Origin: Hippopus hippopus
Taxonomy: Eukaryota > Mollusca > Bivalvia > Cardiida > Cardiidae
DNA: 64,000 nt
Assembly: GCA_946811185.2 (NCBI GenBank)
Contig: OX328108.1
Coordinates: 40,752,357 to 40,816,356, forward strand
Direction: 5' to 3'
The notes under the pieces were generated by a model. It was not told the origin of the DNA. It worked only from the letters and a program-made list of their open reading frames with translations, and ran no database searches. Positions within the stretch are counted from its first letter, which is position 1, and every line of letters begins with the position of its first letter. The translations under genes and the position numbers were made by a program. Below, piece after piece: positions 7,250-24,808 of the stretch.

Positions 7250-7255
7250 GACTAA
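7250..7255 (+). other. target-site duplication, left
   Basis: GACTAA directly precedes the left TIR and is repeated exactly at 24803-24808 after the right TIR. A 6-bp duplication is the Polinton/Maverick hallmark. Confidence 0.9.
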
Positions 7256-8318
7256 AGTAGTAATTATGGCACTATGCAGGTCAAATTGCCTGCGGCACTA
7301 TAGGGGCCAGGCCTTTGTCTTTGACAGTTCAGACTATTGTTAGAGGCCTTTGTCTGTTGGAGGTCAGACTGTCTGTGGCAATATGACGTAATCTTGCATA
7401 CCTTTTGTCTGGCTTTCGTTGCCTCCCACCTGCCGAGGCTAGATGACAATTCCAAGCGTGTTTTGGCGCGTTTTGACCGATCAGGCCGGCGCCCGATTGT
7501 ATAGAACCGAAAATTCAGCCAAAGCATTCGCCATTGAAAATGCATGAGAACTTTCTCTCAAAGAGGTTGCTCTACTAAAAATGCTTTTGTCTGTGAACGC
7601 TTTTACCCCCCTTACCATTCAAAGTCTAGGTTTTGTATTGACTTTAATGAATAAAATCGTATGGTGTTTAACGCCGTTTTCAACATTTTTGTTGCACTTA
7701 AGTCGCTGCGGCCAGTGCACCTATACATGCTTTCCAGCAGTATCTTTTACCAGGGCATCATTTTCTTTCCAAGTCACTGACTGCTGTCTCACATAACCAT
7801 TATTACGGTCAGCTGTGGTAGAGAAATAAATGGTTTCACAATTTTCAGTCCTCGACCTAGCCAGGGATCGAAGCCACGACCCATCTCAAGTCCTGCACGC
7901 TAGCTATTTAAGAGCTCAGCTTTTAGGTCCTCGCTTCTACATGGAAAAGTTTGCGAAAAACTTACTACGATCCCCAAATAGCGGTGGCATAATATAAAAT
8001 TCCCTGTTGGTTTGATCATTAGCTTTCTTAGAAATTCTGATTTTTTTTTTTTTATAATTCATGAGACCTTTCGATACTCTCCTGACAGAGTCGCATATCA
8101 AAATGATTTAATGTTTGAGAAATGTCGACACTCTTCCACGTGATGTCTGGCGCGATTGTATAATATCGTCTGCAAAAATTCAGACAAAGCATTCGCCTCT
8201 CATTAAAAATGCATGAGAAAATGTCGATATTCTTACAAAATAGGTCGCTTTCCGCTGATTAAAATGCGTGATGTCTGGCGCGATTGTATAATATCGTCTG
8301 CAAAAATTCAGACAAAGC
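7256..8318 (+). repeat. left terminal inverted repeat of the Polinton
   Basis: Begins AGTAGTAATTATGGCACTAT and matches the reverse complement of 23741-24802 with only scattered differences (for example near 7400, 7550 and 8135). The match stops at CAGACAAAGC (8318), inside the second 128-bp sub-repeat. The 93-aa and 71-aa ORFs in it are duplicated in both arms and overlap a SINE; I do not call them genes. Confidence 0.93.
7638..7928 (-). mobile_element. tRNA-derived SINE embedded in left TIR
   Basis: Reading leftward it carries a B-box-like GCTTCGATCCCTGGC, then body segments shared with the SINE at 29205-29520 (GCATG-ATAGGTGCACTGGCCG, AAAACGGCGTTAAACACCAT). It is clearly diverged from that copy. 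The same SINE sits at the mirror position in the right arm. Confidence 0.75.
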
Positions 8319-8472
8319 ATTCGCCTCTCATTAAAAATGCATGAGAAAATGTCGATATTCTTACAAAATAGGTCGCTTTCCGCTGATTAAAATGCGTGAT
8401 GTCTGGCGCGATTGTATAGAATCGTCTGCAGAAATTCAGACAAAGCATTCGCCTCTCATTAAAAATGCATGG
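8140..8472 (+). repeat. 128-bp tandem sub-repeat at TIR inner edge
   Basis: GTGATGTCTGGCGCGATTGT begins units at 8140, 8268 and 8396, so the period is 128 bp with a partial third unit. The right arm has one full unit plus a partial, so the arms differ by a unit. Confidence 0.85.
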
Positions 8473-8511
8473 AATTTATAAACACTTTATCAAACGCTTT
8501 TGTCTGTTAAC

Positions 8512-8522
8512 TATATAAAAGG
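8512..8522 (+). promoter_or_regulatory. TATA box
   Basis: TATATAAAAGG lies 82 nt before the ATG at 8594 and only 15 nt before the ATG at 8537. Normal TATA-to-start spacing (about 25-30 nt) puts RNA initiation after 8537, favouring 8594 as the translation start. Confidence 0.6.
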
Positions 8523-8593
8523 CAAACGTTTTGTAGATGAATGTACATTTTCGGAGGAATGTGAGAGTCTGTTATGTGATAGTTATTTTCAAA

Positions 8594-8881
8594 ATGAACA
8601 TTTTAATATCAGATCATACTTATGAAAAGCATTTGTATAACATATCCTATACAGGAGTTTCTTTTTTTTTCAGTAAAACTGTCTTGCTTAATGCAGTTCA
8701 GCTGTGTTTGGATTCTCCTGACAGGCAATATACTGTTGGAAGAAGAGTATATTTTCTAAAGCAATTTAGTTTTTACATAGGGGTTCTAGGTATCAATAAA
8801 CAATTAAGTAATAAAGTAAAAGTTGTGTGCGTTAGAAATGGCACAAAGTTTATTGTTGTAACAGCGTTTCCAGATCATTGA
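8594..8881 (+). CDS. small protein resembling BECR-fold (EndoU/RelE-like) nucleases
   Basis: A 95-aa product. The frame is also open from an upstream ATG at 8537 (114 aa), but the TATA box position favours 8594. Seen in the sequence: an N-terminal DHxxxxH segment (residues 7-12), a central stretch ending IGV (about 60-63), and a C-terminal strand pair ending VVTAFPDH. A leading Asp-His/His segment plus a V-x-TAFP ending is what I associate with phage- and toxin-type Barnase/EndoU/ColicinE5/RelE nucleases. That assignment rests on motif resemblance only. It is the first gene inside the left TIR and converges on the metalloprotease gene. Its role in the element is unknown; RNA cleavage or counter-defence would be guesses. 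Confidence 0.45.
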   Translation: MNILISDHTYEKHLYNISYTGVSFFFSKTVLLNAVQLCLDSPDRQYTVGRRVYFLKQFSFYIGVLGINKQLSNKVKVVCVRNGTKFIVVTAFPDH

Positions 8882-9280
8882 TGTTGGAACCTCGATTATA
8901 GAAAGGTAAGTCCGTTTTACTTCACTTGTTTGTAAACGCTTATAACTCGTTACCATACAAACCCTGGTTTTTACGGTAGTGAGGTAAAAGACTGAAAATT
9001 TAAACGGAACGGGGAGAAAATGAAAGCGTACAGGGGGAAAAGAAGAAAGGTTCTCAATGTGCACAATGAAAATCTGCAGTAAATATGATAGTAAAATATG
9101 AATCGACCTACCTTTAAAGCGTTGTAATCTATTCCTTTTTACAATATAAAAACATATACACAGTTTTCCCGACACACACCCACACAAACACACATAAACA
9201 CTATTTTAGCGAATTACAGGATTTTCTTTTTACATACATACATGTATTAACACAATTTCACATTTTGACCTACACTTGAA
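8882..9280. other. convergent intergenic region, no gene seen
   Basis: Lies between the rightward small ORF and the leftward metalloprotease. A 129-aa reverse frame (8804-9193) overlaps the small gene antisense, is rich in short-repeat residues (CA-rich stretch near 9172-9200) and has no recognisable domain. Confidence 0.5.
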
Positions 9281-9919
9281 TTATTGTATATTTGATCCCG
9301 TGATTGAAACCACGGGCATTTCTTTTGATCTATTTGTGACAAATAAGTTTGCAGCAGCCATGAGACATGCGGTTGTTGTGAACCAAAAATTGTTATGTCC
9401 ATTCCCAATTGGCAATATTGCATGTCCCATCTCGTGTATAATTGTTCCGGCACACTGTCTTTTTGAGTTCATATTGCCACAAAAAATGTGTATTTCATTA
9501 AATTCAGGACCAGCATACTTTGTGAAGCCATTATCATTCGAATCTTTTTCAGGGTGTAAATAAATGTGTAATTGTTTTTTATCTGTACTTCTTGTATGTA
9601 GACAGAACATTAATTGAGCTATAAGTTCTTTGCTATATTTTACAAACGCATCATAGGAGTTCTGTTCAATTAAAGCATCGAAAAAAGAATTAACCCTACA
9701 GATCATTACTTGGCATCGTTTATCAGTGAACTTGGGTGGTTGGTAGGTGATGTCTTCTTTCACCCATTGTGACCCTGAAAAGTGAAATAAAGAGACTCGC
9801 ATCTCTTTGCATTTGAATGGTCCTATCCCTGTTGTTAAAAGAAAACGTAAAGCTTCTATAAGGTTAATGTCTATCGCATGAAACATAACTATAATTTCCA
9901 GTAAATTTAGAATATCCAT
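9281..9919 (-). CDS. putative zinc metalloprotease, HExxH (SprT/WLM-like spacing)
   Basis: A 212-aa product. The motif HEMGH at residues 162-166 is the gluzincin-type zinc site with catalytic Glu. A further His at 175 lies in GHNNFW, recalling the HExxH...GH-x-x-F/W layout of SprT, WLM/Wss1 and YgjP-type proteases. The N-terminal 100 residues are not recognised. SprT/Wss1 enzymes cleave DNA-protein crosslinks; an element whose DNA ends carry a covalent terminal protein could use such an activity. Virion maturation in place of the missing cysteine protease is an alternative. Both roles are inference. The start codon overlaps the end of the upstream frame by 13 nt, so it may be a coupled downstream ORF or the body of a frameshifted longer gene. 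Confidence 0.55.
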   Translation of the reverse strand: MDILNLLEIIVMFHAIDINLIEALRFLLTTGIGPFKCKEMRVSLFHFSGSQWVKEDITYQPPKFTDKRCQVMICRVNSFFDALIEQNSYDAFVKYSKELIAQLMFCLHTRSTDKKQLHIYLHPEKDSNDNGFTKYAGPEFNEIHIFCGNMNSKRQCAGTIIHEMGHAILPIGNGHNNFWFTTTACLMAAANLFVTNRSKEMPVVSITGSNIQ

Positions 9920-10239: not shown

Positions 10240-11545
10240 CAACTTTTATCTCTATATGAGATAATTTGTCAGATAAAATGTCATTGAGCATGTTCTTATC
10301 ATCTATGATCAAATTCTAACATGAATTTCGTTTAAAAAGCGAGAAAAACATCCATTTTTTGACCAAAGAAATGACTTTAGCGGATGCCTTTTACCCCGAT
10401 TTCATATATTGCATTCCATACAAGTGTTGCTGTATGTCATTTTAAATTAAGAAAAAAAAAAAAATTAGGTATAAAGGTATTAGAGATCACTTGTCAGATA
10501 AAATGTCATTGAGCCTGTTCTTATCATCTATGATCAAATTCGAAAGTGAATTTCGTTTAAAACACGACAAAATCCATTTTCTGACTACAGAAATGACTTC
10601 AGCGGGTGTCTTTTACCCCGATTTCATATATTACATTACATACTGCTGTCGCTATATTTCATTTTAAATCAAGAAATAAAAAAATTCAAATTAGGTATAA
10701 AGGTATTGGAGATCACTTGTCAGATAAAATGTCATTGAGCCTGTTCTTATCATCTATGATCAAATTCGAAAGTAAATTTCGTTTAAAACACGACAAAATC
10801 CATTTTCTGACTACAGAAATGACTTCAGCTGATTTCTTTTACCCCGATTCCATATATTACATTACATACTGCTGTCGCTATATTTCATTTTAAATCAAGA
10901 AATAAAAATTTTCAAATTAAGTATAAAGGTATTGGAGATCACTTGTCAGATAAAATGTCATTGAGCCTGTTCTTATCATCTATGATCAAATTCGAAAGTG
11001 AATTTCGTTTAAAACACGACAAAATCCATTTTCTGACTACAGAAATGACTTCAGCGGGTGCCTTTTACCCCGATTCCATATATTACATTACATACTGCTG
11101 TCGCTATATTTCATTTTAAATCAAGAAATAAAAATTTTCAAATTAGGTATAAAGGTATTGGAGATCACTTGTTAGATAAAATGTCATTGAGCCTGTTCTT
11201 ATCATCTATGATCAAATTCGAAAGTAAATTTCGTTTAAAACACGACAAAATCCATTTTCTGACTACAGAAATGACTTCAGCGGATGTCTTTTACCCCGAT
11301 TTCATATATTACATTACATACTACTGTCGCTATATTTCATTTTAAATCAAGAAATAAAAATTTTCAAATTAGGTATGAAGGTATTGGAGATAACTTGTTA
11401 GATAAAATGTCATTGAGGCTGTTCTTATCATCTATGATCAAATTCGAAAGTAAATTTCACTTAAAACACGATAAAATCCATTTTCTGACTAAAGAAATGA
11501 CTTCAGCGGGTGCCTTTTACCCCGATTTCATATATTGTATGCCTG
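10240..11545 (+). repeat. 226-bp tandem array, about six copies
   Basis: TGTCATTGAG recurs at 10279, 10504, 10730, 10956, 11182 and 11408 (steps of 225, 226, 226, 226, 226). Copies 2-5 are nearly identical; the first and last are more diverged. 226 is not a multiple of three, so the ~95-aa ORFs inside are repeat shadows. The array fills the space between the leftward metalloprotease genes and the rightward polymerase, the usual place for a shared control region. Confidence 0.92.
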
Positions 11546-11660: not shown

Positions 11661-13514
11661 ATGGACGCTGTGGCTGAAATAATGGACGTTATGATAAACT
11701 CTTATACGGATCCGGATGAGCTTATGGACTTTGCAACGACCATGGGGATCCAGGATTCCGTGTCTGTAAGACTTAGACTTTTCCAGCTGAGACAACAGGA
11801 ATATGATAATGAGTTTATCGAAGAACAAATGGACTTGGTGCTGCAAACCCTAGGTGGACGTATCCAGACTCCGGTTACTTTTAACGAGGAGGACATGGTC
11901 GTATCGCTAGAGTATGTACAAATACAGGAGGAAATTGATGGAGCTGTCAAAGCCCTTCTTTTTGATGACGATATGAACGAGACAGCAAGGTTGTGTTTGG
12001 AAGATGGTGATTGGGACGATCCATTTGTTCAGACAGGGGGAGGGGAAGAGCCACGGGCGGGACCCTCCGGTCTACAGAACGATCTTTTTGATGACGATAT
12101 GAACGAGACAGCAAGGTTGTGTTTGGAAGATGGTGATTGGGACGATCCATTTGTTCAGACAGGGGAAGGGGAAGAGCCACGGGCGGGACCCTCCGGTCTA
12201 CAGAACGACAACAAACTGAAATACACAATGAGAAAGAAGGACACCCGCACATATGCCAAAAATGCAGCAATAGATACAACATATCAAGTAAAATTGGATG
12301 AGCGGTACAATGGTCAGCGGTTAATAGACGTGAGGCAGGGACTTCATGACATGATCCAGGCAGCCCTTAACGAGGCCCGAGGACACCTGCAGGGGAATGA
12401 TCTAGGTCGTGTCGTGATATATCACGATGCTTTGCACAACCCTGTTGTCGTCCCTTTACAGAAGTGGGATACCCTTGACGCTAATAGAGTTATGGAGATC
12501 CTCGAAAAGGTACTCAATAGTAACCAGGAACTTTCGATCGATGAGACCTTTGATATAATAATAGGGACCATTGACCTACCTAAAGGAGGCAAGCGAAAAC
12601 ATATCATACGTATTAAAGGTGAAAACACTTCATTGGATTTAAAACGCTCGGTAGTGACTATTGAGAATGAAGATAAAATGTGTATGGCAAGGGCCATTGG
12701 AGTCAGCTGGGCAAAATTAAAGAGGTGTACCAAGGAAGAATGGGAGGAGGTAACGAAAAACAGACAGGGAAAAAGTAGCTTGGAGTTGGTTTTAGAATAT
12801 CAAAAAGTCCCCTTGTCTTACTATAACGACCTTGTCAAAAAGAAGAAGAAACACCAAGGACAGCTGGCAAGGGCTCTGTGTAAGATGGCAGGCGTACCCA
12901 TAGACCGAACAGCTAGTCTCAACGATGTGGAGGCATTTGAGGAAATCCTAGGAGTACGCGTGATGGTCATCAGCGCTCGCCTAGGCAATAAATTTATTAC
13001 TGGTCCTAGCAGTGACGGGCGTCCCTGTATCTACGTGTACTTGGTGGACGACGACCACTTTCATGCCATAACAAACATCACTGGGTTTTTTAGCGACTCC
13101 TATTTTTGTGAAAAATGTCTCAAACACTATAGTAATAGGGAATATCACCAGTGTGCAGAAAAATGTATAGTGTGCAAGAGGGACCACTGCCCTAAAACGA
13201 ACAAGACTCTGAGGTGCACAGATTGTAACATGGACTGTAGGTCAGATGATTGTTACAAACAACACAAGAAAGTACCCTTACACAAAAATGGAAGGAGAAA
13301 AGGTCAACCCAGTGGGCCTTCCCAGTGTGAAAAGTGGTGGAGGTGTTTCAGGTGTTACAAGGTACTAAGGACGGACATAAGGAAGAAGGAGGACCATGTG
13401 TGTGGGGAATACTTTTGTAAGACTTGTAAAAAGTATGTGTTGGACGATCATCAGTGTTATTTAAGAGCGAAAGAATGTAAGGACAAGTTTATACCTAAAT
13501 ATATATTTTTTTGA
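11661..13514 (+). CDS. protein-primed family B DNA polymerase, N-terminal part (frameshifted)
   Basis: 617 aa, ending at TGA in a T7 run. It holds an acidic N-terminus, a 42-residue tandem duplication (about residues 99-182), a globular middle domain, and a Cys/His-rich region at about 475-610 with many C-x2-C and H-x-C pairs, probably zinc-binding. The layout matches the long N-terminal region of Polinton polymerases, where a terminal-protein function is suspected. It stops just before the 3'-5' exonuclease domain; the rest of the enzyme follows in the +1 frame. Motif I of the exonuclease straddles the break, so this ORF alone has no catalytic domain. Start chosen for the TATA box and short leader. 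Confidence 0.9.
   Translation: MDAVAEIMDVMINSYTDPDELMDFATTMGIQDSVSVRLRLFQLRQQEYDNEFIEEQMDLVLQTLGGRIQTPVTFNEEDMVVSLEYVQIQEEIDGAVKALLFDDDMNETARLCLEDGDWDDPFVQTGGGEEPRAGPSGLQNDLFDDDMNETARLCLEDGDWDDPFVQTGEGEEPRAGPSGLQNDNKLKYTMRKKDTRTYAKNAAIDTTYQVKLDERYNGQRLIDVRQGLHDMIQAALNEARGHLQGNDLGRVVIYHDALHNPVVVPLQKWDTLDANRVMEILEKVLNSNQELSIDETFDIIIGTIDLPKGGKRKHIIRIKGENTSLDLKRSVVTIENEDKMCMARAIGVSWAKLKRCTKEEWEEVTKNRQGKSSLELVLEYQKVPLSYYNDLVKKKKKHQGQLARALCKMAGVPIDRTASLNDVEAFEEILGVRVMVISARLGNKFITGPSSDGRPCIYVYLVDDDHFHAITNITGFFSDSYFCEKCLKHYSNREYHQCAEKCIVCKRDHCPKTNKTLRCTDCNMDCRSDDCYKQHKKVPLHKNGRRKGQPSGPSQCEKWWRCFRCYKVLRTDIRKKEDHVCGEYFCKTCKKYVLDDHQCYLRAKECKDKFIPKYIFF
11957..12208 (+). repeat. 126-bp in-frame tandem duplication in the polymerase gene
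   Basis: Two copies (11957-12082 and 12083-12208) nearly identical in DNA; they differ at one G/A giving GGGEE versus GEGEE. Each adds 42 residues of acidic sequence. The near identity means a recent event. Confidence 0.95.
13506..13514 (+). other. frameshift site in the polymerase gene (T7 followed by GA)
   Basis: The zero frame reads TTT TTT TGA. Skipping one T opens the frame that runs through 16437. The arrangement allows a Phe tRNA on TTT to slip +1 onto an identical TTT at a stop codon, the layout of known +1 recoding sites. It could equally be a homopolymer mutation or assembly error. Confidence 0.8.
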
Positions 13515-13536: not shown

Positions 13537-16437
13537 ATGAGTGAGTGCGAGAATGGATACATACCGCAAAAGAAAATAGAATGCGCAGATTGTCAACCAT
13601 CACAGGTATGTAAGTCTTGTTCTAAGTGTAAAAACTGCAACACGTCATGGTGCGGTAGAACTACGCATCGTCCCAACTTTGTCTTAGCTCATTCGGTATG
13701 CCCAAAATGTATTGACAATGAATTGACTGCCAAATCAGTATGTAAGAGATGCGGTAGCCGTTGTAAAAAATGTCAAAAAAATCTGGATGAGAAAGATTTG
13801 GGACCTTGTCCAGGGACATGTGGCTTTAGAGAAGTCACTTTCCAGGGACATGATACTGCTGAACAGTTTGGGCAATGGTTATTTACGGAACAACACGAGT
13901 ACTGCAAGGTGGTTGCTCATAACATGAAAGGTTATGACGGTTACTTTCTGCTAGAGTACCTCGTTGATCAGTCATTACGGCCAGACAAAATTATTTACAA
14001 CGGGTCCAAGATAATGTACATGACAGTAGAGCGAGACTTACATATCAAGGTAATAGACAGTCTTAACTTCTTACCCATGAAACTGTCAGCATTACCCAAA
14101 GCATTTGGTTTACATGAATTGAAAAAAGGGTGGTTCCCACATTATTTTAATACCAGAGAGAATCAAAATTATGTTGGGCCCTACCCTGATGCTAAAGATT
14201 ATGGTTACGATTTCATGGGTGAGAAAGAAAGAAGCGAGTTAGTAGAGTGGTTGAAACAGAGACAGTGTGAAGTTTTTGATTTTAGAAAAGAGATGTTAGA
14301 ATATTGTAGAAGTGATGTTGATATATTGAGACAAGCATGTTTGAAATTTAGATATTTGTTAATGAATGCAACGGGAGAAGAAAAAGAGGTCATAAATGGA
14401 AAGGGAAAGACTGAAAAAAGGTGGTTTGGGGCCGTAGATCCTTTCGACAGTGTTACGATTGCATCAGTATGCATGAATGTGTTTAGAAGTAAATTTCTAG
14501 AAGAAAAGTGGAAGGTACAATTGTATGACACTGATGAATGGATCCCAGCCAAACTATGTGAGGGAGTATTGTATGTACTGGTGAAAGATGAATGGGTGAG
14601 TGCAGCAAAATTGAAAGTCAAGGGTAAAGAATTTGTAAGCACCCCGATAGCAAAGATTCCTCCCAGTGGATACAAAGAACAATACAGTAAGGTGTCAATT
14701 CAGTGGTTAGAGTGGCGAGCGCTTACAGACCATGTACACATTCAGCATGCACTGAATGAAGGTGAAAAAAAGATACCAGGAACACGATACAAATTAGATG
14801 GATATTGTGAAGAAACACACACAGCATACGAGTACCACGGATGTGTGTTTCACGGATGCCCTGTGTGTTTCCCAGACAAACGAGAGGACACGTATCACCC
14901 CCTCACCAATCAATCACTGAATGAATTGTATGCTCTGACTCTAAAAAAGAAAGCATACCTCGAGCAATTAGGCATGAAGTATGTGTGTATTTGGGACCAT
15001 GACTTCAAAAAATTAAAGGACGAAAATGAAGAACTCAAAGAATGCATTGCACAATTAGATGTAGCTGACCGATTAGATCCAAGAGAGAGTTTCTTCGGAG
15101 GGCGCACTAATGCCAGTCAACTCTATTACAAAACCAAAGAACATGAACAGGTCAAATACGTAGACTTTACAAGTTTGTACACTTGGGTGAACAAGTATTG
15201 TCGGTATCCCGTAGGTCACCCCAAAATCTTGACCAAAGACTTCGGGAAGCTTGAGGAGTATTTTGGTATTGCCAAAATAAAGACATTACCCCCGAGAGGG
15301 CTGTATCATCCAGTCCTCCCCTATAGATCAAATGGCAAACTGAAATTTCCTCTATGTCGTACCTGTGCGGATACCGAGAATCAAGATTCATGTACATGTT
15401 CTTCTGAAGACAGGGTTTTAATTGGCACGTGGTGCATCCCCGAGATAAAAACGGCTCTAAGACTGGGTTACACACTAGAAAAAATATATGAAGTATACCA
15501 CTGGGAGGAAACAACACAGTATAATCCTGAGACGGGTGATGGGGGGTTATTCGCCAAGTATATCAACACGTTTTTGAAATTTAAGCAAGAGGCGAGTGGC
15601 CCTCCTGATTGGGTCAAAACGAAACAAGACATGACAAAATACATGGAAGATTATCATAAAAAAGAGGGTGTATTGCTGGATCAAAACAGCATTGTAAAAA
15701 ACCCTGGCAAAAGAGCTCTGGCCAAACTTTGTCTCAATAGCTTTTGGGGTAAGTTTGGACAGAGACTCAATATGCGTCAAACCAAAATATATCACGAGAG
15801 TCAAGCAAACTTATTTTTTCAAGTATTTTCTGATCCTACAAAAGAGCCTCTGAACTTTCATATACTCTCAAATGATATGATACAAATAGAGTGGATTTAT
15901 AAACATGACTTTCACCCCGAAGACAACGAAACAAACATTTACTTGGCGACCTTTACAACATGTTGGGCCCGATTAAAATTGTACAGTGTGCTCGAAAAGT
16001 TGAATAAAAGAGTGTTGTACTACGACACGGACTCTGTCATTTACGTGAGTAGACCCGGAGAGTTTGATCCTCCCTTAGGGGACTACTTGGGTGAGTTGAC
16101 GGATGAACTGGAGCAAGGAGAGCATATTGTAGAATTTGTGTCAGGAGGTCCAAAGAATTACGCATATAAGACCAGTACCAACGAGGAAACATGTAAGGTC
16201 AGAGGGTTTACTTTGAACTACACTAATAGCAAACTAATCAATTTTGAAGCCGTGAAAGCTATAGTAACAGATTCAAAAAGTAGTTCAAATATTGTTGTAA
16301 CCAACCCATGTAAAATATGTAGAGACAAAAGAAAGAGGAAATTGTATAATAGAGAAGAAAAGAAAAGTTATCAAATGGTGTATACAAAGCGAAGGAAACT
16401 AGACAATTATGACACTGTACCATATGGATATGACTGA
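13537..16437 (+). CDS. protein-primed family B DNA polymerase, catalytic part
   Basis: 966 aa from the first ATG; the frame is open upstream to the T7 run. It begins with a Cys-rich segment (about 16-95), then exonuclease motif II (AHNMKGYDG, 127-135) and III (YCRSD, 256-260). An insertion at about 415-490 with YHGCVFHGC looks like the VSR/restriction-type nuclease insert of many such polymerases. Polymerase motif A is DFTSLY (543-548), B is LCLNSFWGKFG (731-741) and C is YYDTDS (828-833). All catalytic aspartates are present. Motif A continues with Thr where Pro is usual in this family. The enzyme would copy the linear element from protein primers at the TIR ends. Exonuclease motif I needs the frame shift at 13506-13514. 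Confidence 0.95.
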   Translation: MSECENGYIPQKKIECADCQPSQVCKSCSKCKNCNTSWCGRTTHRPNFVLAHSVCPKCIDNELTAKSVCKRCGSRCKKCQKNLDEKDLGPCPGTCGFREVTFQGHDTAEQFGQWLFTEQHEYCKVVAHNMKGYDGYFLLEYLVDQSLRPDKIIYNGSKIMYMTVERDLHIKVIDSLNFLPMKLSALPKAFGLHELKKGWFPHYFNTRENQNYVGPYPDAKDYGYDFMGEKERSELVEWLKQRQCEVFDFRKEMLEYCRSDVDILRQACLKFRYLLMNATGEEKEVINGKGKTEKRWFGAVDPFDSVTIASVCMNVFRSKFLEEKWKVQLYDTDEWIPAKLCEGVLYVLVKDEWVSAAKLKVKGKEFVSTPIAKIPPSGYKEQYSKVSIQWLEWRALTDHVHIQHALNEGEKKIPGTRYKLDGYCEETHTAYEYHGCVFHGCPVCFPDKREDTYHPLTNQSLNELYALTLKKKAYLEQLGMKYVCIWDHDFKKLKDENEELKECIAQLDVADRLDPRESFFGGRTNASQLYYKTKEHEQVKYVDFTSLYTWVNKYCRYPVGHPKILTKDFGKLEEYFGIAKIKTLPPRGLYHPVLPYRSNGKLKFPLCRTCADTENQDSCTCSSEDRVLIGTWCIPEIKTALRLGYTLEKIYEVYHWEETTQYNPETGDGGLFAKYINTFLKFKQEASGPPDWVKTKQDMTKYMEDYHKKEGVLLDQNSIVKNPGKRALAKLCLNSFWGKFGQRLNMRQTKIYHESQANLFFQVFSDPTKEPLNFHILSNDMIQIEWIYKHDFHPEDNETNIYLATFTTCWARLKLYSVLEKLNKRVLYYDTDSVIYVSRPGEFDPPLGDYLGELTDELEQGEHIVEFVSGGPKNYAYKTSTNEETCKVRGFTLNYTNSKLINFEAVKAIVTDSKSSSNIVVTNPCKICRDKRKRKLYNREEKKSYQMVYTKRRKLDNYDTVPYGYD

Positions 16438-17056: not shown

Positions 17057-17709
17057 TGGCCGTCCCTCTTCCATTCGAACCATGTTCTAGTATGTGTATT
17101 AGCGGACAAATTGGTAGTGGTAAAACCCAATGGGTGTACCGCTTTTTAAAACAAGTAAACCTCATGTACGGACGGGACCCCCCTTCTCATATTCTCTATT
17201 GCTACGGTATCCACCAAGACTTGTTTGATGTCATGGAGAGTTCCATTCCAAACTTTGACAGTAAGCAAGGACTACCTACTGCAGAAGAATTGGATGACTT
17301 CACAAGAGACAAAAAACACAAGTTAATCATTTTAGACGACCTAATGCACGAGGTCATGCGGAGTAAAGAAATGGAGTTACTGTTCACCCAAGGCTGCCAT
17401 CACAGAAAAGTATCGGTGATTATGATCACACAAAACTTATACCCTGGGGGTAAACATGCCAGAACTATAGCTTTGAATACATGGTATCTGGTGCTTATGA
17501 AAAATATTCGTGACATATCTCAAGTAGGAGTGCTAGGACGGCAGCTTTATCCCGGTAAATCCGGAGTGTTTATGAAGGCTTACGAAGATGCCCTTAATAC
17601 GAGACACGGTTATTTCATAGTGGACATGTCCCCTTACTCCGACGACAAGTACCGTTTAAGGACTCGTATATTTCCCAACGAAGATCCTATTGTGTACCGT
17701 TTGACGTAA
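17056..17709 (+). CDS. genome-packaging ATPase (HerA/FtsK superfamily)
   Basis: 217 aa. Walker A GQIGSGKT at 17-24, Walker B LIILDD at 90-95, and a polar sensor TQN at 125-127, the standard order for the A32-like packaging ATPases of Polintons and related viruses. Length is normal for the family. It should power DNA entry into the capsid. Start ATG overlaps the previous stop as TAATG, which supports reinitiation. A GTAAGAAT octamer overlaps its 3' end (17706) just before the next gene. Confidence 0.93.
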   Translation: MAVPLPFEPCSSMCISGQIGSGKTQWVYRFLKQVNLMYGRDPPSHILYCYGIHQDLFDVMESSIPNFDSKQGLPTAEELDDFTRDKKHKLIILDDLMHEVMRSKEMELLFTQGCHHRKVSVIMITQNLYPGGKHARTIALNTWYLVLMKNIRDISQVGVLGRQLYPGKSGVFMKAYEDALNTRHGYFIVDMSPYSDDKYRLRTRIFPNEDPIVYRLT

Positions 17710-17741: not shown

Positions 17742-18065
17742 ATGGTAGAACTAATTAAACAGCAACGTCACTTTTTATATTTAGTGGCCAACACTACAGC
17801 CGACCAGAGAAAAGCGCTTTTAAAAACTATTACCCGTCAACAGCTAAGGGCGCTTAGTCAAATTGCGTACAACATTATCCGGTTCAAAGGTAGATTGACA
17901 CTTACGGAAAAAGCCACCTTAAAGAGGCAGAGACGCTTTATTTACTTGCTTGGAGATCGTAACACGGGGTTTGTTAAAAAGAAGGAAGCTATCCAACATA
18001 AACAACGTATTATCCATACATTGGTGAAGATTGCTTCAGCCTACTTACAACCCGTATTACAGTAA
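17742..18065 (+). CDS. small basic helical protein, paralogue A
   Basis: 107 aa, rich in Lys/Arg and predicted mostly helical. The pattern L-x-L...LL-x2-IT-x2-QL-x-AL-x2-IA-x-NI is shared with the product at 20409-20780 on the other strand, so the element holds two paralogues. Proteins like this sit next to capsid genes in many invertebrate Polintons; a DNA-binding core role like that of adenovirus core proteins has been suggested for that position, but here it is inference. It follows the ATPase by 32 nt and overlaps the next ORF as TAATG. Confidence 0.75.
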   Translation: MVELIKQQRHFLYLVANTTADQRKALLKTITRQQLRALSQIAYNIIRFKGRLTLTEKATLKRQRRFIYLLGDRNTGFVKKKEAIQHKQRIIHTLVKIASAYLQPVLQ

Positions 18066-18381: not shown

Positions 18382-18387
18382 TTTATT
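18382..18387 (-). terminator. AATAAA overlapping the major capsid stop codon
   Basis: On the minus strand CAATAAA spans the capsid stop codon TAA; candidate poly(A) signal for the leftward cluster. Confidence 0.5.
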
Positions 18388-19645
18388 GTATATACACATT
18401 TCTCGCTTTATCGATTGTAAGTATTTCTGGAAAGGTAGCGTACAGCAACAATGTCACACTCTCTGGTAAAGGTTTAGCAAATTTGATTTCCAAACGGCAA
18501 AGACCTCTTCTTTTTGTGTTGTAAGAATAGTAGGGATCGATATCCAGCACATATAGGCAGTATCCTTGCTTGTACTCTTTGTATGTGATGTTGATATCAT
18601 TTCTACAGGAAGTGAGGGTCTGATAACAGTCGGTGAAATGATTTCCTTCAAAATTAGGTTGCAAAGGTTGCGATGGTACGGATTGGCCATCAACGAAGAA
18701 ACCGAGGTAACTGCAGTCGTAATGTTTCAGGTTGAATGGGTTTGTTTTGTAGTCTCCGTTATATGAAACGCTCGCAACCGTCCCTATGATGATTTTGTTT
18801 GGCACCCTACCTTGAAATATATCGTCTGCGTGAAAACTATATTGTCCTTGCGCTATCGAGGTTGTTTTTATCTCTGAGCGGAAATATGGGTACATAGCGG
18901 GAGTGTCCTGAATCATTTTGTCGTGAGCCAGAAGCAAATCGTTCTGTAACCGCTGAATACAGAGCTTGAAACGGGCGTCAACGATTTGCACCTTGTAATT
19001 CGGAGTAAACGCATCTGTAATGATTCGAAAGGCATCGGATGCTTGCCAAAATTTAAGCCCCATTTGCACTCCGTTAATAAGCAACTTGGGTTGTTGAAAC
19101 AAGTCCACCGGGATACTTCCTTCCAGATCTATAATTTTACCACCCTTGGTCTTTTCATATCTTTGGAATAAACCGGTATTTGATCCAGTTTTGGGGTCGC
19201 TATCGTCCAGATTCCGATAATCCTTGTAGAATAATTGACTGGTCAGAAAAGCTTCCTGTATAGATTGATTGGTATTTAATAAGGTGTCAATGTAGGTCTT
19301 ATACGGATGCGTGGTTCCGCTATTCGGGAGTGGTTTTTGTTGTAAATGAATGTCCAGCTGTCTGAAAATGGTGTGCAAAGGTAAATTGATAAGTCCCAGC
19401 GTATCATCTTCTGACACGGGTGTACCGTCTTGTAAAGCGAGTCTCAATTTCACCCTCAATTTACATTCCTTCAAGTTGATGTAGGCGCTGGCCTGTGGCG
19501 GTATATTAAATTCCAAGCTCGATGAAGAATCGGTTACCGGATTAATGGGTCGGAATTCGATCCAATCTTTCGATAACAAGGACGAATCTTTTGGGATCGG
19601 ATTAAATAACGATAATTCTTCACTGTGCTGAATTTTACTCTTCAT
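18383..19645 (-). CDS. major capsid protein (double jelly-roll type)
   Basis: 420 aa, close to the usual size for Polinton capsid proteins. The N-terminal region FRPINPVTDSSSSLEFNIP and the later DCSYLGFFVDGQSVPSQPLQP and HFTDCYQTL stretches match the protein family annotated in animals as F54H12.2-like, which is the Polinton hexon-like capsid protein. It would form the trimeric capsomers of an icosahedral shell. Last gene of the leftward cluster, 9 nt after the coiled-coil protein. The ORF is intact. Confidence 0.9.
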   Translation of the reverse strand: MKSKIQHSEELSLFNPIPKDSSLLSKDWIEFRPINPVTDSSSSLEFNIPPQASAYINLKECKLRVKLRLALQDGTPVSEDDTLGLINLPLHTIFRQLDIHLQQKPLPNSGTTHPYKTYIDTLLNTNQSIQEAFLTSQLFYKDYRNLDDSDPKTGSNTGLFQRYEKTKGGKIIDLEGSIPVDLFQQPKLLINGVQMGLKFWQASDAFRIITDAFTPNYKVQIVDARFKLCIQRLQNDLLLAHDKMIQDTPAMYPYFRSEIKTTSIAQGQYSFHADDIFQGRVPNKIIIGTVASVSYNGDYKTNPFNLKHYDCSYLGFFVDGQSVPSQPLQPNFEGNHFTDCYQTLTSCRNDINITYKEYKQGYCLYVLDIDPYYSYNTKRRGLCRLEIKFAKPLPESVTLLLYATFPEILTIDKARNVYIQ

Positions 19646-19654: not shown

Positions 19655-19999
19655 TCAAAACGCCCAGTCGGGATCTTTGCGATACGTTTTGTGAGTCTTC
19701 TTACGCTTGATATTCTTACGATCTTCGTCAACACCGTTCTTACGTTTTATTTGAGATTTTGCCCTATCAACTACTTCGGCTAATGGGCTCACCATTTTTA
19801 CCTGAGGAGTTTTGACTTTTTCAAGTTTTTCTTCCATATCTCGCAGCAGTTTATTCTTTTCTTCTAGTATTTTCTCCAAATTCCTTATTTGATCTGGGAT
19901 GTGGTCTTTCGGTTTAAAATAATCAATCCAATACTCCACATCTTCTTTGTACGGAACCCACTTCTGTAGTTTTGAATCAAAGACGTCTATGGAACCCAT
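19655..19999 (-). CDS. coiled-coil basic protein between capsid genes
   Basis: 114 aa. N-terminal part with aromatic residues, then a coiled coil at about 37-63 (LEKILEEKNKLLRDMEEKLEK) and a Lys/Arg-rich C-terminus that could act as a nuclear signal, ending RKDPDWAF. Overlaps the minor capsid ORF by 13 nt and sits 9 nt before the major capsid start. The ending recalls the 62-aa protein at 18065. Not assigned to a known family; a scaffold or internal virion role is inference. Confidence 0.7.
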   Translation of the reverse strand: MGSIDVFDSKLQKWVPYKEDVEYWIDYFKPKDHIPDQIRNLEKILEEKNKLLRDMEEKLEKVKTPQVKMVSPLAEVVDRAKSQIKRKNGVDEDRKNIKRKKTHKTYRKDPDWAF

Positions 20000-20412
20000 G
20001 ATTTCTTGAAATGAAGGACACAGTGAAAATCGTTCGAATTCAAATCAATCGGTTTTAAATCTTCGCCTTTTAACGACAGCCTAATAGTGTTAAATTTCTT
20101 GACACTCACGGGTCTATAACGTCGATGAAGACATTCCGTAAATTTAAATTTCTTGTATCTTGTTTCGATTTCTATATTGGTGAGAACGGGTTGTAACTTA
20201 TTCCTGACAAACGTTTCCTCTATAATGTCACAATTCAAATACAACCGCTTACTTTGAGGTGTAAAGTCGCAGGTCAATGACGATTCTACCAGAGCACATA
20301 ACCAACTTCCTTCTAAAATATAGTCCTTAGAAAACTGGAACAAGAAATCTGCGTTATTCTTACGTATATCGATAGATTCTGCGGAATTTAAATACAAGTA
20401 AAACTCTGTCAT
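19987..20412 (-). CDS. minor capsid (penton-like) protein
   Basis: 141 aa. The N-terminal MTEFYLYLNSAES, the central WLCALVESSL and LYLNCDIIEETFVR, and the C-terminal HCVLHFKKSW are the pattern of the single jelly-roll minor capsid protein of Polintons/adintoviruses. It would occupy capsid vertices. Start overlaps the previous stop as ATGA and its end overlaps the next gene by 13 nt. Confidence 0.88.
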   Translation of the reverse strand: MTEFYLYLNSAESIDIRKNNADFLFQFSKDYILEGSWLCALVESSLTCDFTPQSKRLYLNCDIIEETFVRNKLQPVLTNIEIETRYKKFKFTECLHRRYRPVSVKKFNTIRLSLKGEDLKPIDLNSNDFHCVLHFKKSWVP

Positions 20413-20780
20413 TCTTCTCTCCTTGTTCTCAATTGGTCTAGTATAGTAGGAATGAGATAAACTGGGCGTAATAAAATGGGTATAAATGAATGAAATCGTC
20501 GAAGTAAAGTCTTCTTACGGGTTGATGAAACGTTATTTGAGCATAGTGTGCGTAACAATAGTCTCCTTCTTTCAAAATCTTGAACATCTCTTCTCATTGG
20601 ATTAATGACTCCATTAAGTATACGTTTTGCCACCTCGATGATAGCCTTTAGTTGACGATTCGTTAAATTCTGCAGTAAATTCTTCCTTACCGTTGTTTCG
20701 GTCTCTTGTAGGTGAAGTAAATAAGCGATTTGTAAATAGACTGTAGAGTGTTCCATGATTGAATCGGTTAAAATACTCAT
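20409..20780 (-). CDS. small basic helical protein, paralogue B
   Basis: 123 aa (a second ATG lies nine codons in). Same helical pattern as the 17742-18065 product (KNLLQNLTNRQLKAIIEVAKRIL), with Arg-rich clusters toward both the middle and the C-terminus. Linked by ATGA overlaps to TBP upstream and the minor capsid gene downstream. GTAAGAAG lies two bases before the ATG. Likely DNA-binding or core role; inference. Confidence 0.75.
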   Translation of the reverse strand: MSILTDSIMEHSTVYLQIAYLLHLQETETTVRKNLLQNLTNRQLKAIIEVAKRILNGVINPMRRDVQDFERRRLLLRTLCSNNVSSTRKKTLLRRFHSFIPILLRPVYLIPTILDQLRTRREE

Positions 20781-21340
20781 TCCTTCTTACGCGTATAGAG
20801 TTCGAGTTCAATTAGTGTGGGACAAACAATCTCGTCCTCTTTTTGTGAAGAGGTTACACCCGTTATGACCACTTTCCCTGTATGAAAACAACAAAAATGC
20901 ACCCCTTCCCTTTTAAAGTTAAGAGAAGGAAATAACTGGGGTTCGTATACGACATCTTTATCGACAGACAAACGCTTCAAATCCAAATCCGAACTGAGGG
21001 TATGGCTCATAGACATGGTTAAAAGTTTCACGTCCGATAAATTCACTGGATATCCACAATTCTGTATCAGTCTCGCATATTTCCGTATTCGTTCGTACCC
21101 CTCTCTTTTACTCGAAACTTTGCCGTTACAGTTGATAATACCGTTAGAAAACACTAAACAGTTTCCTCCAGCTTTTCTGTGTTGCCATATCAGTCCGGGA
21201 AATCGTGCTGGATCATACCGTACATTCGTTATTTTGGAGCAGAGTTGTCTTAAATCAATAGGACAGTTGAGTTGAGCGCTGTAAAGCACGTTTGTGATGA
21301 TCATGATCGTTTGACTGTCTAGACATAAATGATAGAACAT
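20777..21340 (-). CDS. TATA-box-binding protein (TBP) homologue
   Basis: 187 aa; 175 aa if the second ATG (21304) is used, which the TATA box at 21358-21365 favours. The core has two direct repeats about 90 residues apart. Repeat one has NVRYDPARFPGLIW and CLVFSNGIINCNGK; repeat two has YEPQLFPSL and CCFHTGKVVITG. The four Phe residues that cellular TBP wedges into DNA are all present at the right places (F47, F64, F137, F152), as is KYARLIQ. There is no long N-terminal tail. It likely recruits host or modified transcription machinery to the element's promoters. It heads the leftward late cluster, overlapping the next gene as ATGA. Divergence from any cellular TBP is large, so it is not a recent host copy. 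Confidence 0.88.
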   Translation of the reverse strand: MFYHLCLDSQTIMIITNVLYSAQLNCPIDLRQLCSKITNVRYDPARFPGLIWQHRKAGGNCLVFSNGIINCNGKVSSKREGYERIRKYARLIQNCGYPVNLSDVKLLTMSMSHTLSSDLDLKRLSVDKDVVYEPQLFPSLNFKREGVHFCCFHTGKVVITGVTSSQKEDEIVCPTLIELELYTRKKE

Positions 21341-21376: not shown

Positions 21377-22489
21377 TTACGAGTATTGCTTAATATCAGT
21401 TTCCGGTATCCAGCTGTCATACTTTTTTGGCCAGTGTAACCAGCGCACCAGGACTTCCTGTTTCTTATTGCGTGTCCTTCTTTTCAAAATTTTTTCGATG
21501 CTAAAGTCGGTACCGTCGTCAACGTTTATGGCTTGTAATTCTTGTTCGTAAAATGTACCATCAATTTCATCGTTGTCCCAGTCTACTAACGTGTAAATTG
21601 GAAGTCCTTGTCTTTTGAAACGTGATCTGATTTTGAAAATCTCCCCTGTCCATTTTTGCGAGTATTCTCTGTCAAATACGGACCTGATGTGTGACAATCG
21701 TACAGTCTGGCCGATTTTATATTTGAATTTTTTTATAACGGGCTTTTCCCCTTTGCTTCCTTTGGTTCTAATGAGATACTGTTGAAGACGACTTTCCCCT
21801 TCATTTTTCACGGAAATTGCTGCTGGGTTTTCTCCAAGACTCCTGTGGTGAGTGTGATTGTAACTATGTACAAAATCCTGTAAAATGTCAATGTATCTAC
21901 TAGTTCTGTTTTTGAGCAGGTATCGAAAAATCTTGTGTTTTAGCGTTTTAATAACTCTTTCCGCGTAATTTGCTTTTGTTTCCGTATTATATGCGTACAT
22001 ATGATGTATACTTTGACTATTTAAATATTTATTTACTTCTTTACTTCTAAATTCCATTCCTCTGTCCGTACGAATTGTGTTTGGCTTTTTGGGGCCTGTC
22101 AGTATACGTTTCAATGCCATGACTACATCAGCGCCTCGCTTACTCTTAACAGGTTGAGCATAAAGAAAACGAGAAAATACATCGATAACAATCAAAATGT
22201 ATTTCACACCTTCGTTATGCTTCTGTAAATTGGCCATGTCCATAAGATCCATGTCCCATTGACTGTCGATGCCATTTACAATCACCCTGGAACGTTTAAA
22301 GCGGCGTCTAGCACCCCTGGTCAGAGAATATGCTTCTTGATTCTGCAACCATTGGCGTATTCTGTGCCTGCCAATTTTGTATTTACCCTCGTCTTTAACA
22401 TGTTGATAGAGTTTTTCAGGACCACCATAGCTAGCGGGAGATTTTAAGTCAAAATACAAAGAAGACAAATATTGTTGCCAGTCAGACAT
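21377..22489 (-). CDS. Polinton integrase (RVE superfamily) with chromodomain
   Basis: 370 aa. N-terminal helical DNA-binding part with HRIRQWLQNQ, then the RNase-H-fold core with D81 (WDMDLMDM), D142 (IRTDRGMEF) and E177 (YAERVIKTLK). A beta-rich domain follows (about 255-320) and a C-terminal chromodomain (about 329-368, EVLVRWLHWPKKYDSWIPE). The order and length match the F54H12.3-like integrases of Polintons. It cuts and joins the 5'-AG/CT-3' ends and makes the 6-bp duplication. The chromodomain may steer insertion toward marked chromatin. Ends 36 nt before the TBP ORF. Confidence 0.95.
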   Translation of the reverse strand: MSDWQQYLSSLYFDLKSPASYGGPEKLYQHVKDEGKYKIGRHRIRQWLQNQEAYSLTRGARRRFKRSRVIVNGIDSQWDMDLMDMANLQKHNEGVKYILIVIDVFSRFLYAQPVKSKRGADVVMALKRILTGPKKPNTIRTDRGMEFRSKEVNKYLNSQSIHHMYAYNTETKANYAERVIKTLKHKIFRYLLKNRTSRYIDILQDFVHSYNHTHHRSLGENPAAISVKNEGESRLQQYLIRTKGSKGEKPVIKKFKYKIGQTVRLSHIRSVFDREYSQKWTGEIFKIRSRFKRQGLPIYTLVDWDNDEIDGTFYEQELQAINVDDGTDFSIEKILKRRTRNKKQEVLVRWLHWPKKYDSWIPETDIKQYS

Positions 22490-22516
22490 GTTTATTTATT
22501 ACATGGACATCCATAC

Positions 22517-22688: not shown

Positions 22689-22701
22689 GTTCACATCGGT
22701 T

Positions 22702-23091
22702 TTAGAAAAAGGCTGAATTCAAAGCACTCCAGTTATATGTAGAACCGTCACGGGACAATCTTCCATTGGTAACAGACGCGTTTCGTTGTGTATCACACCT
22801 TGAAGTGATTTGACTCGTGTATCCCGTCATTTTCAAATATATACAGGACGGAGACCATTTCTCGTGCTCTTCCCAAGGATCGTCCTTTTCCTCCCATGAC
22901 ATTATGTTGACACCACAGGCAAAACACGTCACTTTATCCGCAGTACCGGTGTAAAAGAAGCCCGCTTTTGCTAATGACCATTTCTCAGGCTTTATTTGCT
23001 TCGACCAGTGCTCATACGTTTGTAGTCTATCTTCACATAACATCAAGGCTGGCTTCGAATATGCAGTCACTTTTGTAGAATCTTTGAACAT
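22702..23091 (-). CDS. single-BIR inhibitor-of-apoptosis-like protein
   Basis: 129 aa. BIR domain at about 20-88: RLQTYEHW, then LAKAGFFYTGTADKVTCFACG and DDPWEEHEKWSPSC. Zinc ligands are C56, C59, H76 and C83 in the correct C-x2-C-x16-H-x6-C spacing. There is no RING domain. Viral and cellular IAPs bind caspases or IAP antagonists; a single-BIR protein in a virus-like element fits blocking of host cell death, but binding partners cannot be read from sequence. The 40-residue tail is not recognised. Could have been taken from a host IAP gene, though no intron trace is seen. Confidence 0.9.
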   Translation of the reverse strand: MFKDSTKVTAYSKPALMLCEDRLQTYEHWSKQIKPEKWSLAKAGFFYTGTADKVTCFACGVNIMSWEEKDDPWEEHEKWSPSCIYLKMTGYTSQITSRCDTQRNASVTNGRLSRDGSTYNWSALNSAFF

Positions 23092-23133
23092 GGTGCTTAT
23101 TAATGTGATGTTAATTCTGTCAATCGCGCCTAT

Positions 23134-23619
23134 TTACCAGTTTCCGTTATCGTTAGGGTTACATTCAGAACACCGCAACGCCCCTAACTGGTTCATATGA
23201 TCACTTTGAAGGTAACAGGGAATGACAGCGTCCAACTCGGGTAGATTCCTACCAATCTCTGACACGTGTTTTTTAAGAGAGTTATATTCAGCGGGTCTTA
23301 AGCAGATACCCTTTTTGGTCGGTACCACTTCATTGTCTGGTTTCCAATACTGTCTTATATCTACACAAACGCTGTTTTCACCGATACTGCAATAAACGTT
23401 TCCTCCTAGGTGAGCGCTGTATGCTTTTTTACCGTGTAATGCTTGATCAACAAACTCAGAGGCATCTACCAAATTCTTCCATCTCATAAGCGTAAGACTA
23501 ATGCCTTTCTTAGTAGGTATGTCTTCCTGCCATTCCCTGATATCGACTCTCAGTTCACCCCTCCATTCACTGACCTGTACGTAGCGTTCGTTACCGAGAC
23601 TAAATTTACATCTAACCAT
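23134..23619 (-). CDS. tandem PC4/p15-domain protein
   Basis: 161 aa with two PC4-like repeats: residues about 4-55 (RVDIREWQED...PTKKGISLTLMRW) and about 70-115 (VDIRQYWKPD...PTKKGICLRPAEY). Cellular PC4 is a transcription coactivator that also binds single-stranded DNA, normally as a dimer; two domains in one chain could mimic that dimer. A short tail has C-x2-C (LRCSEC). In this element it may work with the TBP-like protein at promoters, or cover single strands made by protein-primed replication. Both are inference. First gene inside the right TIR, transcribed leftward; a TATATTA-like site lies near 23673-23680. Confidence 0.85.
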   Translation of the reverse strand: MVRCKFSLGNERYVQVSEWRGELRVDIREWQEDIPTKKGISLTLMRWKNLVDASEFVDQALHGKKAYSAHLGGNVYCSIGENSVCVDIRQYWKPDNEVVPTKKGICLRPAEYNSLKKHVSEIGRNLPELDAVIPCYLQSDHMNQLGALRCSECNPNDNGNW

Positions 23620-23740
23620 GTTGCTGATTCGAGTGTCAAAACTCTTATGACTCCAAACACGAAATTCAGCTTTCTAATATAGTCACAAAGTCTCTTCTGA
23701 TTGGTCAGTTTGTTTTTTCCATCTGACCAATTGATTATTC

Positions 23741-24802
23741 GCTTTGTCTGAATTTTTGCAGACGATATTATACAATCGCGCCAGACATCACGCATTTTAA
23801 TCAGCGGAAAGCGACCTATTTTGTAAGAATATCGACATTTTCTCATGCATTTTTAATGAGAGGCGAATGCTTTGTCTGAATTTTTGCAGACGATATTATA
23901 CAATCGCGCCAGACATCACGCGGAAGAGTGTCAACATTTCTCAAACATTAAATCATTTTGATATGCGACTCTGTCAGGAGAGTATCGAAAGGTCTCATGA
24001 ATTATAAAAAAAAAAAATCAGAATTTCTAAGAAAGCTAATGATCAAACCAACAGGGAATTTTATATTATGCCACCGCTATTTGGGGATCGTAGTAAGTTT
24101 TTCGCAAACTTTTCCATGTAGAAGCGAGGACCTAAAAGCTGAGCTCTTAAATAGCTAGCGTGCAGGACTTGAGATGGGTCGTGGCTTCGATCCCTGGCTA
24201 GGTCGAGGACTGAAAATTGTGAAACCATTTATTTCTCTACCACAGCTGACCGTAATAATGGTTATGTGAGACAGCAGTCAGTGACTTGGAAAGAAAATGA
24301 TGCCCTGGTAAAAGATACTGCTGGAAAGCATGTATAGGTGCACTGGCCGCAGCGACTTAAGTGCAACAAAAATGTTGAAAACGGCGTTAAACACCATACG
24401 ATTTTATTCATTAAAGTCAATACAAAACCTAGACTTTGAATGGTAAGGGGGGTAAAAGCGTTCACAGACAAAAGCATTTTTAGTAGAGCAACCTCTTTGA
24501 GAGCAAGTTCTCATGCATTTTCAATGGCGAATGCTTTGGCTGAATTTTCGGTTCTATACAATCGGGCGCCGGCCTGATCGGTCAAAACGCGCCAAAACAC
24601 GCTTGGAATTGTCATCTAGCCTCGGCAGGTGGGAGGCAACGAAAGCCAGACAAAAAGTATGCAAGATTACGTCATATTGCCACAGACAGTCTGACCTCCA
24701 ACAGACAAAGGCCTCTAACAATAGTCTGAACTGTCAAAGACAAAGGCCTGGCCCCTATAGTGCCGCAGGCAATTTGACCTGCATAGTGCCATAATTACTA
24801 CT
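23741..24802 (-). repeat. right terminal inverted repeat of the Polinton
   Basis: Reverse complement of 7256-8318 with only scattered mismatches. Holds one full 128-bp sub-repeat (23793-23920) plus a partial, and the same embedded SINE. Confidence 0.93.
24130..24420 (+). mobile_element. tRNA-derived SINE embedded in right TIR
   Basis: Mirror copy of the SINE at 7638-7928, with TAGCGTGCAGGACTTGAG, GCTTCGATCCCTGGC, ATAGGTGCACTGGCCGC and AAAACGGCGTTAAACACCAT. Confidence 0.75.
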
Positions 24803-24808
24803 GACTAA
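24803..24808 (+). other. target-site duplication, right
   Basis: GACTAA, exact partner of 7250-7255. Confidence 0.9.

What the first reader, a model, noticed from the sequence alone, without database searches (positions are those of the whole stretch)
7250..24808. Virus-like Polinton carrying a transcription and host-control module (TBP, tandem PC4, BIR)
One intact element encodes the core set (polymerase, integrase, ATPase, two capsid proteins) plus a TATA-binding-protein homologue, a two-domain PC4-like protein and a BIR protein. Together these could let the element set up its own promoter recognition and hold off cell death, as large DNA viruses do. Core genes are established knowledge for Polintons; the joint presence of this accessory set is, as far as I know, not described.
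Basis: partly seen in the sequence, partly recalled or inferred. Interest (0 to 1): 0.93.

Follow-up and report, generated by a model that had tools for sequence, protein, structure and literature searches.

The report
Clam virus-like transposon with transcription genes
This clam-like genome carries very many near-identical copies of a virus-like transposon that brings its own versions of two basic transcription proteins and a cell-death inhibitor, and similar single-exon genes in other clams, now read as host genes, may come from such elements.

Summary
Window 7256-24802 is a Polinton/Maverick with 1.06-kb inverted repeats, AGTAGT ends and a 6-bp target duplication. TBP (Pfam 2e-26; AlphaFold pLDDT 91.7), a two-domain PC4 (2.7e-27) and one BIR (8.7e-25) are real. 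The capsid gene has the double-jelly-roll fold. "Intact" is not shown: the polymerase lies in two ORFs in different frames.

It is not one element. The host genome (1.07 Gb) holds at least 176 loci with a match. Sampled copies of the window's class differ by 0.9-3.8 substitutions per kb, so amplification was recent. TBP, PC4 and BIR lie together in most scored copies; a second subfamily keeps TBP and PC4, with no BIR found. TBP and PC4 are under purifying selection (dN/dS 0.23, 0.08). Named animal relatives are bivalves, one nematode record apart. The open library's listings show no record of the set.

Most consequential lead: published hard-clam "retroposed" intronless BIR genes and a "BIR+PC4" gene type look like cargo of such elements, because here PC4 and BIR are adjacent and intronless. 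Not tested on hard clam. A promoter code of its own is not supported: no significant TATA or motif enrichment.

The parts
7250..7255 (.). Left copy of 6-bp target-site duplication GACTAA
7256..8318 (+). Left terminal inverted repeat, begins AGTAGT
9281..9919 (-). 212-aa ORF with HEMGH zinc-metalloprotease-like motif (weak SprT-like match E 0.1, below cut-off)
   Evidence: sequence; same gene in two more copies
10258..11536 (.). Array of a 226-bp repeat, 5.7 copies, between metalloprotease-like ORF and polymerase
11661..13514 (+). 617-aa ORF upstream of polymerase, no Pfam match; read as the N-terminal part of the polymerase gene (inference)
13537..16437 (+). 966-aa family-B DNA polymerase ORF (DNA_pol_B_2, 1.7e-45), in a different frame from the preceding ORF
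16796..17056 (+). 86-aa small ORF with a hydrophobic stretch, whose stop overlaps the ATPase start
17056..17709 (+). Genome-packaging ATPase (Pox_A32, 8.6e-6)
17742..18065 (+). 107-aa small protein, weakly like the 123-aa protein (24% identity, E 0.025)
18383..19645 (-). Major capsid protein, double jelly roll (Sputnik E 1.1e-16, mavirus 4.1e-16)
19655..19999 (-). 114-aa charged protein, no family above cut-off
19987..20412 (-). 141-aa protein, candidate minor capsid (inferred only)
20409..20780 (-). 123-aa small protein
20777..21340 (-). TBP homologue, two TBP repeats
21377..22489 (-). Integrase (rve 5.6e-14) with C-terminal chromodomain (3.2e-9)
22702..23091 (-). Single-BIR protein in one open frame
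23134..23619 (-). Tandem PC4 protein with a conserved C-terminal Cys/His cluster
23741..24802 (-). Right terminal inverted repeat, ends ACTACT
24803..24808 (.). Right copy of target-site duplication GACTAA

Best explanation
A bivalve-type Polinton (integrated, virus-like double-jelly-roll DNA element) that carries a selected transcription module. Its divergent TBP is proposed to replace or compete with host TBP on some element promoters and recruit host TFIIB and polymerase II. Its fused double PC4 is proposed to act as a built-in dimer that binds melted or single-stranded DNA, helping promoter opening and strand-displacement replication. Its BIR is proposed to bind caspases or their activators while the element replicates. 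Shown: domains, TBP fold, gene order, copy number, purifying selection. Inferred: every biochemical step.
For: TBP 2e-26, PC4 2.7e-27 in two stretches, BIR 8.7e-25. TBP model pLDDT 91.7; the 44 Foldseek hits with E <= 0.001 are TBP or complexes holding it. The four Phe that align with the DNA-kinking Phe of human TBP (roles recalled) are at 47, 64, 137 and 152; in 30 aligned TBPs 47 and 64 are invariant, 152 is kept in 90% or more, 137 is less conserved. 111 TBP and 276 PC4 relatives at E <= 0.001. A against B (L023): dN/dS TBP 0.23, PC4 0.08, capsid 0.11. Of 149 element TBP rows 124 have a PC4 row within 4 kb and 109 a BIR row, with capped lists. Three of 3 fetched loci with a 65-68% BIR have PC4 upstream and integrase downstream. 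One 9,321-nt contig length recurs in the TBP, PC4 and capsid lists.
Against: No significant TATA or shared-motif enrichment upstream of 12 ORFs. No expression data. The polymerase frame is split, so this copy may not replicate by itself. No BIR found in the 5 sampled B copies, nor a BIR row beside any of 24 PC4 rows at 75-79%. Several sampled copies have stops or broken frames in single genes. Contig-length coincidence is indirect evidence of linkage. TBP-capsid co-divergence is modest (r = 0.62, 13 of 720 permutations at least as high, 6 pairs).
Confidence: 0.55

Rival explanations
1. PC4 and TBP act against the host rather than for element promoters: TBP soaks up TFIIB/TFIIA or TAFs to damp host transcription, and PC4 serves as the single-strand binding protein for protein-primed strand-displacement replication.
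For: No significant promoter motif enrichment; element TBP is far from host TBP (31.6% identity over 57 residues of a host exon), so it need not read host TATA boxes; no other single-strand binding protein was recognised among the ORFs scanned.
Against: The Phe residues aligned with DNA-contacting positions are largely retained; two upstream regions (first polymerase ORF, TBP itself) do carry a TATAWAW.
Confidence: 0.3
2. Passively captured host genes without function in the element.
For: Vertebrate Mavericks mostly have two accessory regions with diverse ORFs (PMC8097293, passage); no BIR found in subfamily B.
Against: Purifying selection on TBP and PC4; same PC4-BIR-integrase order in three older loci of this genome; hundreds of relatives; element TBP only 31.6% identical to host TBP over the exon compared.
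Confidence: 0.05
3. Domesticated host genes rather than element genes.
For: TBP-like and PC4-like proteins appear as clam or mussel proteins in public records.
Against: Sampled copies lie inside elements: the 6-bp duplications differ between sites (3 of 3 tested: GACTAA, GTTCTT, ACCGAC), 14 of 20 fetched copies show the right end with differing flanks, and near-identical copies lie at many sites.
Confidence: 0.04

Closest known systems
Polinton/Maverick elements of animals
   Same: Family-B polymerase, rve integrase, A32 ATPase, double-jelly-roll capsid, TIRs, AGTAGT/ACTACT ends (the commonest ends of vertebrate Mavericks, PMC8097293 passage), 6-bp duplication
   Different: Carries TBP and tandem PC4 as conserved genes and BIR in one subfamily; no adenain-type protease recognised; has a metalloprotease-like ORF
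Mirusviruses (PMC10132985, passages)
   Same: A eukaryotic DNA virus lineage in which TBP is common (59% of genomes)
   Different: HK97-fold capsid (PMC10675990 passage), genomes up to about 437 kb; PC4 and BIR were not looked for there
African swine fever virus and other large DNA viruses (recalled)
   Same: TBP-like and IAP genes in one virus (recalled, not tested)
   Different: Encode their own RNA polymerase (recalled); none was recognised in this element
Burro giant retrotransposons of planarians (PMC6431247, passages)
   Same: Mobile element with a BIR domain
   Different: LTR retrotransposon, BIR inside a polyprotein
Hard-clam intronless IAP genes and 'G3' BIR+PC4 type (PMC7831173, passages)
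   Same: Single-exon BIR-only genes scattered over chromosomes, DNA transposons enriched around IAP genes, and a BIR+PC4 gene type
   Different: Interpreted there as retroposition and domain co-option; 0 occurrences of 'Polinton' or 'Maverick' in the main text

Membership tests
[quoted passage not shown]
   DNA_pol_B_2 1.7e-45, but gene in two frames; protein priming not testable
Polinton/Maverick | Retroviral-type (rve) integrase | tested here: met
   rve 5.6e-14 plus chromodomain 3.2e-9
Polinton/Maverick | A32/FtsK-type packaging ATPase | tested here: met
   Pox_A32 8.6e-6, above cut-off
Polinton/Maverick | Double-jelly-roll major capsid protein | tested here: met
   AlphaFold pLDDT 84.1; Sputnik and mavirus capsids top Foldseek hits
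Polinton/Maverick | Minor capsid (penton) protein | tested here: inconclusive
   141-aa candidate, no Pfam match, not modelled
Polinton/Maverick | Adenain-type cysteine protease | tested here: inconclusive
   No such Pfam match in 18 queries covering 16 ORFs, E limit 10 or 1; remote forms and smaller ORFs could be missed
Polinton/Maverick | TIRs with AG...CT ends and 6-bp target duplication | tested here: met
   two more copies
TBP | Two-repeat saddle fold | tested here: met
TBP | Binds duplex DNA and TFIIB | not testable with these tools
   Aligned Phe largely kept; family consensus YEPELFP as in human TBP, window YEPQLFP; function untested
PC4 | PC4 single-strand DNA-binding domain | tested here: met
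   Two PF02229 stretches; matches solved PC4 chains
BIR/IAP | BIR zinc fold | tested here: met
   PF00653 8.7e-25; 82 PDB sequences at E <= 0.001
BIR/IAP | Caspase or IAP-binding-motif binding | not testable with these tools
   The Trp of the NIMSW motif is kept in 12 of 14 sampled copies with BIR (one Arg, one stop); its role is recalled

The most novel reading that the evidence does not exclude
Bivalve Polintons are virus-like elements that bring part of their own pre-initiation machinery (TBP and a fused PC4 dimer) to host RNA polymerase II. Through repeated amplification they are a major source of the intronless BIR genes, PC4 duplicates and BIR-PC4 fusion genes that are now reported as bivalve stress-adaptation gene families.
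Probability: 0.4. Interest if true: 0.88.

Novelty: new variant of a known kind. Interest (0 to 1): 0.74.

Why it matters
A small double-jelly-roll DNA element with its own TBP and PC4 would be a route to transcriptional autonomy without a viral RNA polymerase. Bivalve IAP expansion and PC4 genes are discussed as stress adaptation (PMC7831173, PMC8328476, passages); if many of these genes are element cargo, those gene counts and association results need re-reading. The test is simple: map the published genes onto Polintons in the same assemblies.

Tried and rejected
Relatives in IMG/VR viral contigs by capsid and by TBP alignment: no confirmed match. Prokaryote genome contigs by TBP alignment: none confirmed. 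Phage records by ATPase: none. Promoter code: TATA and k-mer tests not significant. The presumed left end of a B copy (L034) matched no window gene or repeat, so the left part of subfamily B is unknown. Idea that element PC4 and BIR are one gene: they share a frame in the window and in 10 of 10 class-A copies, parted by a stop, but not in the 4 A' copies nor in L029 (ORF coordinates), so they are treated as two genes. Paralogy of the 107-aa and 123-aa proteins: weak only. Idea that the C. nigoni protein P0111 shows a TBP-bearing nematode Polinton: rejected, its TBP part is host-like (86.7% to the L001 exon over 30 residues) next to a stretch that reads like a capsid fragment (eye comparison only).
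Full report
WHAT IS THERE. The window lies in an unnamed 1.07-Gb genome of 34 contigs. The element spans 7256-24802. Its ends are AGTAGT and ACTACT, the inverted repeats are 1.06 kb, and GACTAA flanks both sides. Pfam finds family-B polymerase, rve integrase with chromodomain and A32-type ATPase. The 420-aa protein models as a double jelly roll (pLDDT 84.1) and hits the Sputnik and mavirus capsids first. TBP, two PC4 domains and BIR are all far above Pfam cut-offs. The TBP model matches solved TBP chains over about 180 columns, TM-score 0.84 at the top hit.

CORRECTIONS. The polymerase region is two ORFs in different frames, so this copy is not shown to be intact. I did not ask what would make it whole. 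The second capsid protein is inferred. No adenain-type protease was recognised in the ORFs scanned.

A FAMILY, NOT A SINGLETON. TBP search of the own genome: 409 first-look candidates, 150 scored, all matches. The best row has a different, ordinary TBP sequence and is read as a host exon; 148 of the other 149 show no stop in the matched domain. PC4: 432 candidates, 150 scored, 148 without a stop; 73 rows match the window's protein over its full length at 100%. BIR: 291 candidates, 150 scored; 130 rows at 97-100% identity, 123 of them without a stop, 75 at 100%, then a gap to 63-68%. Of 130 BIR rows at 97% or more, 126 have a PC4 row within 1 kb and 109 a TBP row within 3 kb; of 126 PC4 rows at 96% or more, 126 have BIR within 1 kb and 106 TBP within 4 kb; of 24 PC4 rows at 75-79%, 18 have TBP within 4 kb and none has a BIR row within 1.5 kb.

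SUBFAMILIES. Twenty copies were fetched, chosen by me across score classes from the 150 TBP rows. Class A (10 copies) differs from the window by 1.7-3.4 substitutions per kb, and copies differ among themselves by 0.9-3.8; A' (4 copies) differs from A by 14.5-17.7 per kb. Class B (5 copies) keeps the capsid gene and TBP, keeps PC4 in 4 of 5 (in L019 that end is damaged), and shows no BIR; one copy, L026, is a fragment. Several copies in all three classes have stops or broken frames in single genes. Between A and B the capsid gene and TBP differ by dS 0.2-0.3, the integrase by 0.54 and PC4 by about 2 (near saturation). That points to a recombinant: the PC4/BIR end was exchanged as a block (inference).

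SELECTION. A against B (L023): dN/dS TBP 0.23, PC4 0.08, capsid 0.11, ATPase 0.09, integrase 0.13; the 123-aa protein is loosest at 0.39. L017 gives almost the same. Within the recent A/A' split the counts are too small to weigh.

AGE OF THE MODULE. All three have PC4 on one side and integrase on the other; PC4 is only partial in two, the integrase is broken in all, and in L029 a polymerase stretch follows the broken integrase while PC4 and BIR are open. None of the 20 rows has a scored PC4 row within 3 kb, probably because the capped PC4 list ends above their similarity. So PC4-BIR-integrase is older than the present burst. The same BIR type occurs in inverted pairs about 5-8 kb apart at several places, not followed up.

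ACROSS SPECIES. 111 TBP, 276 PC4 and 162 capsid relatives were found at E <= 0.001 (at most 120 listed). Distances in TBP and capsid agree modestly over six pairs, the window and those five. Some capsid relatives sit in records of gill-symbiont bacteria of clams, which I read as host DNA carried over (inference).

MECHANISM. The residues of TBP that align with the DNA-kinking Phe are largely kept; the family consensus YEPELFP (YEPQLFP in the window) is the stretch that in human TBP meets TFIIB (residue roles recalled). The PC4 protein has two domains and a nearly invariant Cys/His cluster at its end; human PC4 acts as a dimer (recalled), so this looks like a fused dimer. Genes from TBP to the capsid overlap or abut, which leaves little room for promoters between them. 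I tested for a promoter code and did not find one. Expression, DNA binding and caspase binding are untested.

PUBLISHED GENES THAT MAY BE CARGO. The hard-clam paper (PMC7831173; passages, part of the abstract among them) reports 159 IAPs, 51 of them intronless and scattered, read as retroposition; one clade has 49 members, 42 intronless with one exon encoding BIR; DNA transposons are enriched around IAPs (0.12 against 0.05); a BIR+PC4 gene type is called an innovation of hard clam and mussels. The main text does not mention Polintons or Mavericks. Another hard-clam paper lists Mavericks at 31-35 Mb, the largest entry in the part of its DNA-transposon table that I saw (PMC8905726, passage). Here BIR and PC4 are neighbours, each in one open frame. 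In bay scallop, two of five PC4 genes are single-exon with two PC4 domains (PMC9223095, passages). The thermal-tolerance candidate PC4 lies on chromosome 15 (PMC8328476, passages), where one single-exon and one three-exon PC4 gene are listed; the text speaks of 'CDS 1', so the three-exon gene is as likely, and I cannot say which it is. None of these genes was tested here.

NOVELTY. Listings from the open library for Polinton, Maverick or adintovirus with TBP, PC4, IAP or BIR show no paper describing the set (listings of titles and abstract starts, some cut: 30 of 223 papers, 25 of 33). Term searches inside three Polinton or Maverick papers gave no TBP or TATA, PC4 or apoptosis hit (PMC11071308, PMC8097293, PMC10120064; not every term was tried in each). 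TBP in mirusviruses and BIR in a planarian retrotransposon are known. Subscription papers and most preprints are not covered.

Noticed in passing
window 58044-59732 (-): Long host-like ORF resembling a matrix metalloproteinase (by eye; no search run).
   Followed up: no
window 1799-3233, 32294-33896, 37146-37453: Related repeats in inverted orientation; the block at 32.3-33.9 kb matches at steps of about 145 bp.
   Followed up: no
window 10258-11536: 226-bp tandem repeat, 5.7 copies, four of them with a TATAAA at the same spacing, in the left part of the element.
   Followed up: partly
window 9281-9919: HEMGH metalloprotease-like ORF kept in the two further class-A copies read; its reading frame is broken in one of them.
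   Followed up: partly
L002-L008, between TBP and integrase: These copies have a stretch similar to the terminal repeat (about 70% over 187 nt) between TBP and integrase.
   Followed up: no
P0111 (Caenorhabditis nigoni protein): Gene model that seems to join a capsid-like stretch to an ordinary nematode TBP.
   Followed up: no
G000 C2, C3, C8, C10, C12, C14: BIR matches in inverted pairs about 5-8 kb apart, and a group of BIR frames of about 131 aa mostly on C3.
   Followed up: no
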